A stretch of DNA of 64,000 nucleotides from Sulfobacillus thermosulfidooxidans DSM 9293. GTDB taxonomy: Bacteria; Bacillota; Sulfobacillia; Sulfobacillales; Sulfobacillaceae. Positions within the stretch are counted from its first letter, which is position 1, and every line of letters begins with the position of its first letter. Where the stretch lies: positions 1,039,819 through 1,103,818 of the forward strand of contig NZ_FWWY01000001.1 in NCBI RefSeq assembly GCF_900176145.1, read 5' to 3'. Below the pieces are notes generated by a model. That model did no database searches and had not been told where the DNA came from. It saw only the letters and a program-made list of their open reading frames with translations. Below are positions 16,841 through 41,718 of the stretch, piece by piece. A program made the translations under genes and the position numbers.

Positions 16841-17884
16841 GTGCACCCACGATTAACGCAAATGACGAGCAAATCCGGGTGAGGGTGCAAATTAGGTCCG
16901 GAGGACCTAACGAGCGCTTTAAGCTTTATCCCGCCTACCAAGTTTCGGGATGAAGACGTCCTGGTCGGCAATGAGACACACGATGATGCGGGAATCTACC
17001 GGTTAAGTCCGGATCAAGCTCTCGTTCAAACCGTAGACTTTTTAACTCCGGTTGTGGACGATCCCGAATTATTTGGGAAAGTGGCGGCGGCCAATTCCTT
17101 ATCCGATGTCTATGCCATGGGTGGAATTCCGATCACCGCGTTGAACTTATTGGCGGTTCCCGAAGGCGTCTTATCAGCAGAAGAAGTCGGAGCGATGTTG
17201 CGCGGGGGACAGAGTATTTTAGATGAAGCCGAATGCCGTCTTTTAGGCGGGCATTCTATCGACGACAATGAACCTAAAATGGGGTATTCCGTGACGGGTT
17301 TGGTGCATCCCGATCATATTTGGCGCAATAGCACGGCCCATCCTGGTGATGTGCTTTATCTTTCCAAACCCATTGGGAGTGGAGTGGTGATTAAAGCGAT
17401 CAAAGACGGGGAAGCCAGCCAAGAAATGATTGATGGGGTGATTGCCATGATGTTAACGCTGAACAAAAAGGCCAGCGAAACCATCAAACGTGTCGGCGAT
17501 CCCACGGCTTGCACCGATGTCACGGGGTTTGGACTGCTCGGACACTCGTGGGAAATGGCCCAAGGTGCCAATGTGGCCATTGAACTTTATGCGTCCTCAG
17601 TGCCGACCCTTCCGGGGGCCAAGGAATTGGCGCAACAAGGCAAGTTCCCCTCAGGAAGCCGGCGCAACTTGGAATATGTGGCGCCTCATCTTGAGGTGGA
17701 TCCTGGCTTCGATCACAATATTCTGACCTTATTGGCCGATGCGGTGACCTCAGGCGGACTGCTCTTCACAGTCAAAGAAGAAAACGCCGCCTCGTTCGAA
17801 GCGACGTTTTCTGATCAGCACGTCCCACTCTACCGCATCGGACGCGTGTTACCGGGTCCGGCCCAAGTTAGGGTGTTGGGATAA
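16841..17884 (+). CDS. selD: Selenophosphate synthetase with in-frame UGA (selenocysteine) in the active site
   Basis: Read from the GTG at 16841 (AGGAGGTGA 5 bases upstream) with UGA at 16880-16882 decoded as Sec, the product is 347 residues, the usual SelD length. It begins MHPRLTQMTSKSG-U-GCKLGPEDL. U14 is exactly where SelD has its catalytic Cys or Sec (C/U-G-C-K). The frame continues with VLVGNETHDDAGIY, VQTVDFLTP, DVYAMGG and ACTDVTGFGLLGH. A hairpin follows the UGA. Without recoding only an N-truncated 276-residue product from the GTG at 17054 would be called. The enzyme makes selenophosphate from selenide and ATP. Its 3' end overlaps the convergent gltX by 17 bases. Confidence 0.9.
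16880..16910 (+). other. Sec codon and putative bacterial SECIS hairpin of selD
   Basis: UGA at 16880-16882 is followed by stem TTAGGTCC (16892-16899) / GGACCTAA (16903-16910) with loop GGA. The loop G lies about 17 bases after the UGA, within the spacing known for bacterial SECIS elements bound by SelB. Confidence 0.7.
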
Positions 17885-24119: not shown

Positions 24120-24247
24120 GACAAGGTGCTGAGATGTTTCTGGCCCAGGGCATCGACATTTTATGAAAAACACGGTATCGTGCAAGTATCTCGCGTTTAC
24201 ACGTTATCTTTTTTTATAATATGGGGAACTTATAAGGAGGATCCATG

Positions 24248-24493
24248 ATGAAAGTGATTGTTTATACGCAACCGGGCTGACACGCGTGTACCGAGGAGAA
24301 AGCGTGGCTTTCCCAACAGCATGTTGAGTTTGAAGAGCGCAACATTCGCCATAATGTGTCCTACATCGATGAAGTCGTGGCCTTAGGTTCACAAGCGACT
24401 CCGACCACGGTCATTGAAGACGATGACGGACAGCAACATGTCGTAATCGGCTTTCAAATTCGTAGTCTCAAAGAACATCTCAAATTATCCTAA
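24248..24493 (+). CDS. Glutaredoxin-like selenoprotein with an in-frame UGA (UxxC)
   Basis: With UGA at 24278-24280 read as Sec, the frame gives an 81-residue thioredoxin-fold protein: MKVIVYTQPG-U-HACTEEKAWL at the start, then VEFEERNIRH, an ATPTTVIED block (cis-Pro) and VVIGFQIRSLKEHL at the end. This is the full glutaredoxin/NrdH plan with U-H-A-C where the family has CPxC. AAGGAGG (24234-24240) fits the ATG at 24248 with 7 bases spacing (ATG at 24245 is the alternative), so translation is intended despite the early UGA. A hairpin follows the UGA at SECIS spacing and a terminator follows the stop. It is likely a thiol/selenol oxidoreductase of the cytoplasm. Confidence 0.82.
24278..24314 (+). 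other. Sec codon and putative SECIS hairpin of the glutaredoxin-like gene
   Basis: After the UGA, GGAGAAAGC pairs with GCTTTCCC (6 bp, a bulged A, then 2 bp) around loop GTG. The loop GU is about 24 bases after the UGA, within the bacterial SECIS range and resembling the GU loop of E. coli fdhF. Confidence 0.6.
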
Positions 24494-24513: not shown

Positions 24514-24545
24514 AGCCCACCGTCATACGGTTGGGCTATTTTTTC
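24514..24545 (+). terminator. Intrinsic terminator after the glutaredoxin-like gene
   Basis: AGCCCACCGT pairs with ACGGTTGGGCT (one bulged T), loop CAT, followed by ATTTTTT. Confidence 0.8.
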
Positions 24546-24607: not shown

Positions 24608-24700
24608 GACGGTCATGGAACTGGGTTCCCCACCGGCTGCAAACCGGTTGGCAGTCTCGGGTAGAGATTGGTTGGGTTCGATTCCCAATGACCGTCTCCA
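24608..24700 (+). tRNA. tRNA-Sec-shaped tRNA with Cys anticodon GCA (selC-like variant)
   Basis: 93 nt. The acceptor stem has 8 bp (GACGGTCA/TGACCGTC), the T stem 5 bp (TTGGG/CCCAA, loop TTCGATT), so an 8/5 arm as in bacterial tRNA-Sec. The D stem is GGAA/TTCC with loop CTGGG. The anticodon stem ACCGG/CCGGT encloses CTGCAAA, anticodon GCA. The variable arm is a 7-bp stem CAGTCTC/GAGATTG with loop GGGTA. U73 and encoded CCA follow, then T7. GCA, U73 and G1-C72 are CysRS identity features, whereas the 8/5 arm and long variable arm belong to tRNA-Sec. Ordinary tRNA-Cys has a short variable loop. TATAAT at 24580-24585 may be its -10. Confidence 0.85.
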
Positions 24701-37806: not shown

Positions 37807-39036
37807 TTAGGCGACGACCGCGGGTCCCGCATGAGGCGGCTCATCCGTCGCCGCTTGAGACCGTTTCGCTTGCCAGTAAGGCTCGAGATTCAGATACCGC
37901 TTACCCGTGGTCCACACCTCATGCTGCTCGAGCAACAGCGCGCCCACCAGGCGGATCGCCGACTCCCGGTTCGGAAAAATCCGAATCACCCGTTCTCGGC
38001 GCCGGATCTCAGCATTGAGCCGCTCGACGCCATTCGTGGTGCGTAATCGCTGGCGCAGCGACTCGGGGAGTTGCAACACCGCTAGCGCGTCCTCGAGCCC
38101 GTTCTCCAGAATCGCCACGGCGCGGGGAGCCCGCTCGGCAAAGTCCTCGAGCAGTTTGGTCCACAAGGTGTCGACGGTGGCCCGGTCGGGGGCTTCGAAG
38201 AGCGCGCGGAGGCGGCCGTGCAGCTCCTCCTGCACCGCTTTGGGCGCGGCATCGAGGATATTCCGCGTGAGGTGCGTTTGGCAGCGCTGCCAACTCGCCC
38301 CTTGGAATTGCTGTTCGATAGCCTGCCGCAGCCCGCGGTGGTCATCCGACACCACCAGGTCGACGCCCGTTAAGCCTCGATCCTTGAGGTCGGTAAACAC
38401 GGCCGTCCACGTCTGCTTCGATTCGCTATCCCCGATCCAAAACCCGAGAATTTCTCGGTACCCCGCCGCATTAATGCCGGTCACCACACACCCGCTCCGG
38501 GACCGGACGGCCCCGTTCTCGCGGATTTTCAAGACCAAGGCATCGACAATCAGGAACGGGTACGGCGTCTCCGCGAGGGATCGGGTTCGCCATTGCTGGA
38601 CGGCCGCCTCTAAGCCTTTCGCGAGGTCCGACACCGTGGACTTCGAAAATTCGGTGCCACAGAGTTCTTCGGTCACGCGCCGAATTTTGCGGGTTGACAC
38701 CCCATTCACCACCATTTCCATCAACGTGAGGACGAGGGCTTTTTCATGCCGCTGGTACCGCTCAAAGAGTGTCGGACTGAACTCCCCGTCCCGCGTCCGC
38801 GGGACCTCCAGCGTCAACGTGCCGACGCGCGTCGTGAGCTGCCGGCTCCGTGAGCCGTTGCGATATCCGCGCCGGTCTTCGGTCCGCTCGTACCGGTCGG
38901 CTTGAAGATGTTCCGTCACTTCGGCTTCTAACACCTGATTTAAGACCTGTTGCAACAAGAGCGCGAAGGCCTGATCCTTTTGTCCGACCAGGGCTTGGAT
39001 TGTTTGATCATCCAGTGTAATCTGATAATGAGCCAT
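37807..39036 (-). CDS. IS256/Mutator-type transposase
   Basis: 409 residues. RYERTEDRRGYRNGSRSRQL near the N-terminus, LTLEVPRTRDGEFSPTLFERYQR, PYPFLIVDALVLKIRENG (first catalytic Asp), VVSDDHRGLRQA (second Asp) and the late Glu in TTNGVERLNAEIRRR. This is the full DDE transposase of the Mutator-like family, with no frameshift, so probably active. GAGGATC precedes the ATG. Confidence 0.95.
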   Translation of the reverse strand: MAHYQITLDDQTIQALVGQKDQAFALLLQQVLNQVLEAEVTEHLQADRYERTEDRRGYRNGSRSRQLTTRVGTLTLEVPRTRDGEFSPTLFERYQRHEKALVLTLMEMVVNGVSTRKIRRVTEELCGTEFSKSTVSDLAKGLEAAVQQWRTRSLAETPYPFLIVDALVLKIRENGAVRSRSGCVVTGINAAGYREILGFWIGDSESKQTWTAVFTDLKDRGLTGVDLVVSDDHRGLRQAIEQQFQGASWQRCQTHLTRNILDAAPKAVQEELHGRLRALFEAPDRATVDTLWTKLLEDFAERAPRAVAILENGLEDALAVLQLPESLRQRLRTTNGVERLNAEIRRRERVIRIFPNRESAIRLVGALLLEQHEVWTTGKRYLNLEPYWQAKRSQAATDEPPHAGPAVVA

Positions 39037-40947: not shown

Positions 40948-41448
40948 TATCCACCTTGCGCTGGGAATGAGTTTGGTTTAGATAGGAGACGGTCGGGGCA
41001 GCTCTTTCACGCGGGCCGGTCAAGCGGGCAACCAGGGTAAGCAATCGGCTCAGGTCGCGCCGCGGTAATTGTTCGGACAGATATTGGATAGGCCCGAATC
41101 ACATTGAATCACATTCAAGGCAATCGCACTGCCTTGCGTCCCCCTCGGGTTGCTCTCCACCTTCAGCGGCCCATTTTTCGAGAAACCGCGTGAGAGGTTT
41201 CCATTAATTCAGACGATAGGTCACCGTCTTGCTCAAGGGGCACTTCGGAAAGATGTGACGTCGCGGTAGCCAAGCATTGCAAATAAGTGTGAAATCCGGT
41301 AATAAATTTTCACCCATAGCGTTTATGGCGTCCGGGATGATATTCGTATAACATAATGAGTGAGTTTATCCGTCCGCTTCAATACAGCCAATTGAAGTAT
41401 ACGCCTATGCGGCCATCAAGAGTCGCGAAAGGTATAATGGAGCCGTTT
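40948..41448. other. Intergenic, no recognised gene
   Basis: About 500 bases of mixed composition with no intact gene on either strand. The minus strand has short broken frames around 41000-41340 that I cannot assign. Confidence 0.4.
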
Positions 41449-41718
41449 ATGCCGAAAATAGCTGAGTGGGGCCGAATAAGGATTTATATGTATTACCCTC
41501 CTAAGGAACACCCACCCTGTCATATACATATTAAAGGGATAGGGTGTGAAGTTTCAGTAGACTTTTTAGGAAATATTTTGAAAGGGATTTCAATTTGCTT
41601 TTCTACTAGCGAATGGAAGAATGTGATGAACTGGATTAACAACCATCAAAAAGAATTACAGGAAAACTGTACACGAGCGCAGAATCATAGAAATTTGAAC
41701 TCTATTCCATATCCCTAG
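41449..41718 (+). CDS. DUF4160-family protein (putative toxin-antitoxin partner)
   Basis: 89 residues from the ATG at 41449, chosen because MPKIAEWGRIRIYMYY is the usual family start and GGAG lies 6 bases upstream. The family block HPPCHIHIKGIGCEVSVDF and the W..NH.KEL C-terminal helix are present. DUF4160 genes usually sit next to DUF2442 genes, as here, and the pair has been suggested to be a toxin-antitoxin-like module; activity is not established from sequence. The AT-richer composition than the neighbours suggests transfer. Confidence 0.75.
   Translation: MPKIAEWGRIRIYMYYPPKEHPPCHIHIKGIGCEVSVDFLGNILKGISICFSTSEWKNVMNWINNHQKELQENCTRAQNHRNLNSIPYP

What the first reader, a model, noticed from the sequence alone, without database searches (positions are those of the whole stretch)
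24608..24700. A tRNA with tRNA-Sec architecture but a cysteine anticodon (GCA) and U73
The fold is unambiguous by hand: 8-bp acceptor, 5-bp T stem, 7-bp variable arm, and a GCA anticodon in a normal CTGCAAA loop. Bacterial tRNA-Sec has the 8/5 arm, the longest variable arm and anticodon UCA. Normal tRNA-Cys has a 7/5 arm and a short variable loop. This hybrid carries CysRS identity bases (GCA, U73, G1-C72) on a SelB/SelA-like frame. It stands 115 bases after a gene with an in-frame UGA, in a genome with a Sec-type selD. It could be a minor cysteine tRNA or a route to put Cys or Sec at UGC/UGU, or could compete at Sec sites. From memory, Sec-like tRNAs with sense anticodons have been reported in metagenome surveys, so the class may not be wholly new, but its partner genes here would be.
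Basis: partly seen in the sequence, partly recalled or inferred. Interest (0 to 1): 0.92.

Follow-up and report, generated by a model that had tools for sequence, protein, structure and literature searches.

The report
Cysteine tRNA built like selenocysteine tRNA
This Sulfobacillus-type bacterium carries, beside its normal cysteine and selenocysteine tRNAs, a known but rare third kind of tRNA that looks made to put cysteine where selenocysteine belongs, and here it sits right next to a selenoprotein gene.

Summary
Window 24608-24700(+) encodes a 93-nt tRNA with 8-bp acceptor stem, 5-bp T stem, 7-bp variable arm, GCA anticodon, U73 and encoded CCA. Rfam's tRNA-Sec model accepts it (49.9 bits, cut-off 47); ARAGORN calls tRNA-Cys. 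The genome also has an ordinary tRNA-Cys, an ordinary UCA tRNA-Sec, SelA, one SelB, a Sec-containing SelD and one CysRS, so this is not the housekeeping tRNA-Cys. It belongs to a published class: tRNASec-shaped tRNA-Cys (selC*, 'tRNA-ReC'), charged with Cys and carried by SelB to Sec UGA codons. A census matched 115 stretches; 78 of the 80 listed fold as this kind, in several phyla. Outside Sulfobacillia, 30 of 68 lie within 3 kb of selenium genes (YedF, YedE, SelB, selenium LysR, SelD). In the window's genus the tRNA directly follows a glutaredoxin-like gene: a UGA selenoprotein with a conserved SECIS hairpin in three genomes, a UGC version in the fourth. Best reading: Cys-for-Sec insertion at UGA via SelB, probably a fallback when selenium is short. 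Charging and decoding were not tested. New member of a known kind.

The parts
24608..24700 (+). tRNASec-like tRNA-Cys (GCA), 8/5 branch, 7-bp variable arm, U73, encoded CCA (tRNA-ReC type)
   Evidence: ARAGORN, Rfam RF01852 49.9 bits, covariation across 11 distinct homologs
24245..24493 (+). Glutaredoxin-like UxxC selenoprotein gene (82 aa, U12), adjacent upstream gene
   Evidence: Translation with TGA=U; Pfam Glutaredoxin 4.2e-8; homologs in 31 of 41 related genomes, most with one in-frame TGA
24278..24280 (+). In-frame UGA (Sec codon) in the PGUHAC motif
   Evidence: the aligned codon is TGC or TGT in Cys homologs
24296..24314 (+). SECIS-like hairpin, GAAAGC-GUG-GCUUUC core
   Evidence: 92% of hairpin cells paired in 24 UGA homologs with compensatory changes, 62.5% in 6 Cys homologs
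16841..17884 (+). selD, itself a selenoprotein (U14, SGUGCK; UGA at 16880-16882)
   Evidence: TIGR00476 276.5 bits; read-through
16892..16910 (+). SECIS-like hairpin of selD, UUAGGUCC-GGA-GGACCUAA
   Evidence: Fold z -4.1, 0 of 200 shuffles as stable
24514..24545 (+). Terminator-like hairpin with T-run between the glutaredoxin-like gene and the tRNA (one bulge), suggesting separate transcription
   Evidence: Read from sequence; not called by the simple scan; weak

Best explanation
The gene encodes a tRNA of the tRNA-ReC / selC* class: a cysteine tRNA on a tRNASec frame. CysRS charges it with cysteine (U73, GCA). Its 13-layer acceptor branch and long variable arm make it a poor EF-Tu substrate and a SelB substrate. 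SelB brings the Cys-tRNA to UGA codons followed by a SECIS hairpin, so some selenoprotein copies (here the glutaredoxin-like protein and SelD, both in the window) carry Cys instead of Sec. This most likely keeps such proteins made in usable form when selenium or Sec-tRNA is short. Shown here: the tRNA, its conservation with covariation, the presence of canonical tRNA-Cys, tRNASec, SelA, SelB, SelD and CysRS, the SECIS-bearing UGA genes, and the selenium-gene neighbourhood of the class elsewhere. Inferred from published work on a relative: charging, SelB use and UGA decoding. Inferred only: the selenium-shortage role.
For: Structure and identity bases; covariation. U73, CCA and GCA invariant in all 12 homologs of the order. 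Separate canonical tRNA-Cys and UCA selC in the same genome. SelA at C1:47364-48647, one SelB over cut-off, one CysRS, Sec-SelD. All 12 genomes behind the alignment have SelB over cut-off. Census: 78 of 80 listed pattern matches fold as 13-layer, GCA, U73 tRNAs in several phyla, including Desulforamulus and Desulfotomaculum species, the group of the tested relative. 30 of 68 non-Sulfobacillia loci lie within 3 kb of YedF, YedE, SelB, selenium LysR, SelD or a cysteine desulfurase. The adjacent UGA gene has a SECIS hairpin conserved with compensatory changes and weakened in Cys homologs. Published: PMC11415595 states that in Desulfotomaculum nigrificans a GCA tRNACys with tRNASec-like structure decodes Sec UGA with Cys, delivered by SelB and not EF-Tu; PMC7609411 describes the selC* class.
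Against: No charging, delivery or peptide data for this organism. The D-arm is shortened, and the window's T stem lacks the A51a bulge described as the hallmark of selC* tRNACys (PMC7609411). The tRNA is patchy: four members of the genus have the UGA glutaredoxin-like gene without a detected tRNA (one is only 61% complete), so it is not required for that protein. In G004 (S. thermotolerans) the neighbour already uses UGC yet the tRNA is kept.
Confidence: 0.72

Rival explanations
1. A minor tRNA-Cys that reads ordinary UGC/UGU codons through EF-Tu; its tRNASec shape is a relic.
For: GCA anticodon in a normal loop and U73 suit standard Cys decoding. It persists in G004 beside a UGC version of the neighbour.
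Against: A canonical tRNA-Cys exists. The 13-layer branch with long variable arm is conserved with covariation, and EF-Tu is reported to bind 8-bp acceptor tRNAs poorly (PMC7609411). The class lies near selenium genes elsewhere.
Confidence: 0.13
2. A tRNASec variant that is serylated, converted by SelA and puts Sec at Cys codons, as reported for Aeromonas salmonicida.
For: 8/5 branch and long variable arm match the tRNASec model; GCA-bearing tRNASec exists in nature (PMC11415595).
Against: U73 is invariant in the homologs, whereas SerRS is reported to recognise G73 and SelA the 6-bp D-stem (PMC7609411); here the D-stem is 5 bp. The genome's own UCA selC keeps G73.
Confidence: 0.06
3. A regulatory decoy: it ties up SelB or CysRS to tune selenoprotein synthesis, with little direct role in decoding.
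For: Selenium-gene neighbourhood in other phyla; a single SelB gene to compete for.
Against: Anticodon, U73 and encoded CCA are invariant, as expected for a charged, decoding tRNA; the tested relative recodes UGA (PMC11415595).
Confidence: 0.07

Closest known systems
tRNA-ReC, the tRNASec-like tRNACys of Desulfotomaculum nigrificans (Vargas-Rodriguez et al. 2018, RNA Biol 15:471; read only through PMC11415595; the name ReC is from memory)
   Same: tRNASec frame, GCA anticodon, Cys identity, delivered by SelB in the relative; the census pattern built on the window's tRNA also recovers Desulforamulus and Desulfotomaculum species
   Different: Many Desulfotomaculia members have an interrupted T stem where the window has five plain pairs; the window's D-arm is shorter; its neighbour is a glutaredoxin-like selenoprotein
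selC* tRNACys (Mukai et al. 2017; described in PMC7609411)
   Same: tRNASec-like, U73, GCA, in Firmicutes, Nitrospirae and others
   Different: Described hallmark is a modified 8/4 branch with bulged A51a; the window's is a plain 8/5. No second SelB over cut-off and no second CysRS here
Bacterial tRNASec (selC, UCA)
   Same: 8/5 branch, long variable arm, passes RF01852
   Different: GCA not UCA, U73 not G73, smaller D-arm; a true UCA selC is present separately
Canonical tRNA-Cys
   Same: GCA, U73
   Different: 13-layer branch and long variable arm; the canonical copy is 75 nt

Membership tests
tRNA-ReC / tRNASec-like tRNACys | tRNASec-like frame: 13-layer acceptor/T branch and long variable arm | tested here: met
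   8/8 acceptor, 5/5 T stem, 7-bp variable arm; RF01852 above gathering score
tRNA-ReC / tRNASec-like tRNACys | CysRS identity: GCA anticodon and U73 | tested here: met
tRNA-ReC / tRNASec-like tRNACys | Host also encodes canonical tRNASec and SelB | tested here: met
tRNA-ReC / tRNASec-like tRNACys | Host also has an ordinary tRNA-Cys | tested here: met
tRNA-ReC / tRNASec-like tRNACys | Charged by CysRS, delivered by SelB, puts Cys at UGA | not testable with these tools
   Needs bench work; UGA decoding with Cys and SelB delivery reported for D. nigrificans in PMC11415595
selC* tRNACys with 8/4 bulged branch | 4-bp T stem with bulged A51a | tested here: not met
   Window and its order-level homologs have five uninterrupted T-stem pairs
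Bacterial tRNASec | UCA anticodon, G73, 6-bp D-stem | tested here: not met
   GCA, U73, 5-bp D-stem
Canonical tRNA-Cys | 7/5 branch and short variable loop | tested here: not met
   8/5, 7-bp variable arm
Bacterial selenoprotein gene (upstream ORF) | In-frame UGA aligned to Cys in homologs plus a SECIS hairpin shortly downstream | tested here: met

The most novel reading that the evidence does not exclude
tRNASec-like tRNA-Cys genes belong to a selenium-homeostasis module kept across several phyla (with YedE, YedF, SelB, a selenium LysR regulator, or a UGA selenoprotein). Expressed when selenium is scarce, they switch a defined set of selenoproteins, including SelD, from Sec to Cys at the same UGA codon: a regulated two-amino-acid codon rather than a translation accident.
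Probability: 0.35. Interest if true: 0.72.

Novelty: new member of a known kind. Interest (0 to 1): 0.45.

Why it matters
It extends a rare recoding tRNA to Sulfobacillus-type bacteria, in a plain 8/5 form, and gives a compact natural test case: a tRNA 114 nt from a small SECIS-bearing UGA gene, with sister species that lack the tRNA or carry UGC in place of UGA. The neighbourhood census ties the class to selenium genes in several phyla, which makes the open question of what these tRNAs are for directly testable.

Tried and rejected
(1) Only tRNA-Cys of the genome: rejected, a canonical copy exists. (2) Covariance model rejects the fold: no, RF01852 accepts it. (3) Strict partnership with the glutaredoxin-like gene: not supported; homologs with UGA occur without the tRNA, and the tRNA without the gene. 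(4) Second SelB or CysRS dedicated to this tRNA: not found in this genome. (5) Bootstrap of Sec-containing SelD: of 42 tRNA-bearing genomes, 39 had a SelD hit and every one of these has a UGA-SelD, but so do nearly all SelD genes in the window's class and in the Desulforamulus phylum, so the test does not discriminate. (6) Recent origin from the genome's own selC: a tRNA tree puts the selC genes apart from these tRNAs and the Sulfobacillia ones in one clade (0.975), but deep support is weak. (7) Plasmid origin: no match in PLSDB. (8) The original papers (10.1080/15476286.2018.1474074, PMC5389517, PMC4833512) are not in the library, so their surveys could not be checked for Sulfobacillus.

Full report
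Observation. The window holds a tRNA gene at 24608-24700(+). ARAGORN names it tRNA-Cys (gca) and Rfam names it tRNA-Sec, 49.9 bits against a gathering score of 47. Written out: acceptor GACGGTCA/TGACCGTC (8 pairs), D-arm GGAAC-TGG-GTTCC, anticodon arm ACCGG-CTGCAAA-CCGGT, variable arm CAGTCTC-GGGTA-GAGATTG, T arm TTGGG-TTCGATT-CCCAA, U73, encoded CCA. The one detail to correct is the D-arm: 5 pairs and a 3-base loop, where homologs in other genera of the family have 6 pairs and 4 bases as in bacterial tRNASec.

Not chance, not decay. Twelve homologs (11 distinct) from related genomes give 92.9% paired cells and a covariation score of 0.455 against 0.154 in shuffles, with none of 500 reaching it. 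U73, CCA and GCA are invariant. The eighth acceptor pair is A-U only in the window's genus; in other genera of the family it is an A.G mismatch, and the UCA selC genes of the family read G.A there by eye. The length of the 3' strand (13 layers) is kept throughout.

The genome. The window lies at C1:1039819-1103818 of a 3.86-Mb assembly in two contigs, 99.9% complete. The genome G004 of the same genus has the same length, 3,317,203 bases, as Sulfobacillus thermotolerans Kr1 (CP019454.1), so the window's genus is taken to be Sulfobacillus. The genome has a UCA tRNASec at C1:116893-116984 (64.5 bits), a canonical 75-nt tRNA-Cys at about C1:40021-40095, SelA, one SelB over the family cut-off, one CysRS and SelD in the window. 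The listed SelD ORF starts late because the gene has an in-frame UGA (U14, motif SGUGCK) followed by an 8-pair hairpin with a GGA loop, z -4.1.

The neighbour. The ORF at 24245-24493 reads MMKVIVYTQPGUHACTEEKAWLSQ..., a glutaredoxin-like UxxC protein (Pfam Glutaredoxin 4.2e-8; below cut-off to the Uxx-star and YruB/NrdH models). Homologs occur in 31 of 41 related genomes, most with a single in-frame TGA. In 24 UGA homologs the 19-base hairpin behind the UGA is 92% paired with compensatory changes (for example GAGAAAGC-GUG-GCUUUCUC and GAGAGAGC-GUG-GCUCUCUC); in six Cys homologs it is 62.5% paired. Folding the window's single sequence alone gives no significance for this hairpin (z 0.2), so the support is comparative. 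This is a SECIS-bearing selenoprotein gene.

The linkage. The tRNA lies directly downstream of this gene in four genomes of the genus: the window genome, G001, G003 and G004. In G004 the codon is UGC and the hairpin's first loop base has changed from G to U, yet the tRNA stays. The pair persists although the flanks differ: within the stretches fetched, lipB is not found in G003, and tadA is not found in G001 and G004. Four other members of the genus (G002, G005, G006, G007) have the UGA gene and no detected tRNA (G007 is 61% complete). In other genera of the family the tRNA lies elsewhere, without the gene nearby. So the adjacency is genus-level synteny and suggestive, not proof of a partnership.

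The class. A pattern for GCA anticodon, long variable region, 13-layer branch and U73-CCA was scanned over one genome for each of 84,980 species and matched 115 stretches; 80 were listed, and 78 of those fold as this kind. They span Nitrospirota, Desulfotomaculia and other Firmicutes, Sulfobacillia, Actinobacteria and Chloroflexi. Many Desulfotomaculia members have an interrupted T stem, while most others, like the window, have an uninterrupted 8/5 branch. In the window's GTDB class, members at 73 bits or more lie in the window's family plus one genome of another family of its order, and one further GCA tRNA from another family scores 71.5.

Selenium neighbourhood. Clustering ORFs around these tRNAs shows recurrent neighbours, whose representatives NCBIfam identifies as selenium YedF (TIGR03527), YedE putative selenium transporter (TIGR04112), selenium-metabolism LysR regulator (NF040786), SelB (TIGR00475) and a cysteine desulfurase family protein (TIGR01977). 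Counting these plus SelD and SelA by BLAST, 30 of 68 loci outside Sulfobacillia have at least one within 3 kb. A rough expectation for a handful of single-copy families and a 6-kb span in a 3-Mb genome is 1-2% (my estimate, not a tool result). These loci are related to each other, so 30 is not 30 independent events, but they cover several phyla.

What is known. [quoted passage not shown] 2018). PMC7609411 describes selC* tRNACys in Firmicutes, Thermodesulfobacteria, Nitrospirae and Proteobacteria, with a modified 8/4 branch, and in two deltaproteobacterial groups a second selB and in one of them a second cysS. From memory, the 2018 paper names the class tRNA-ReC and suggests a safeguard in selenoprotein production; that paper could not be read here.

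Mechanism. Shown: the tRNA, its conservation, the full set of Sec genes, two SECIS-bearing UGA genes in the window, and the selenium neighbourhood of the class. Inferred from the tested relative: CysRS charging, SelB delivery, Cys at UGA. Inferred only: that the purpose is to keep selenoproteins in a working Cys form under selenium shortage. Against the Sec-at-Cys-codon idea stand U73 and the reduced D-arm, since SerRS is reported to recognise G73 and SelA the 6-bp D-stem (PMC7609411). Against an ordinary minor tRNA-Cys stand the conserved 13-layer branch and the canonical copy.

A test that did not discriminate. Because SelD is itself a selenoprotein, this tRNA could supply Cys-SelD and restart the pathway. 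Of 42 genomes carrying the tRNA, 39 had a SelD hit, and each of these has a UGA-SelD. But almost all SelD genes in the window's class and in the Desulforamulus phylum have it too, so the association says nothing.

Verdict. Observation confirmed; interpretation partly supported; a new member, in plain 8/5 form, of a known recoding tRNA class.

Noticed in passing
window 16841-17884 (+): selD is itself a selenoprotein (U14, SGUGCK) with a strong SECIS-like hairpin at 16892-16910; ordinary ORF calling misses its N-terminus.
   Followed up: yes
L175-L254 (census loci): Across several phyla, tRNASec-like tRNA-Cys genes lie beside YedF, YedE, SelB or a selenium LysR regulator (30 of 68 loci outside Sulfobacillia).
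   Followed up: partly
L080-L085, L076 (other genera of the family) and the family's selC loci: The eighth acceptor pair is an A.G mismatch in these tRNAs and reads G.A in the family's UCA tRNASec, so the 13-layer branch is kept without a standard pair there.
   Followed up: partly
L079/L116 (G004, S. thermotolerans): The neighbouring glutaredoxin-like gene has UGC instead of UGA and a changed hairpin loop, yet the tRNA remains immediately downstream.
   Followed up: partly
L160 (G118:C67): A related tRNA scores 73 bits but ARAGORN cannot assign its anticodon ('gc'); possibly decaying or with an altered anticodon loop.
   Followed up: no
G002 and G022: No CysRS match was found in these draft genomes (98% and 95% complete); probably assembly gaps, but unexplained.
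   Followed up: no
G000:C2:119462-119662 (+): A second glutaredoxin-like homolog (51% identical) without an in-frame stop lies on the smaller contig.
   Followed up: no
window 41356-41718 (+): Weak match (E 6.9e-6, far below cut-off) to the DhiT toxin model, about 2.3 kb from an IS256-type transposase (37807-39036).
   Followed up: no
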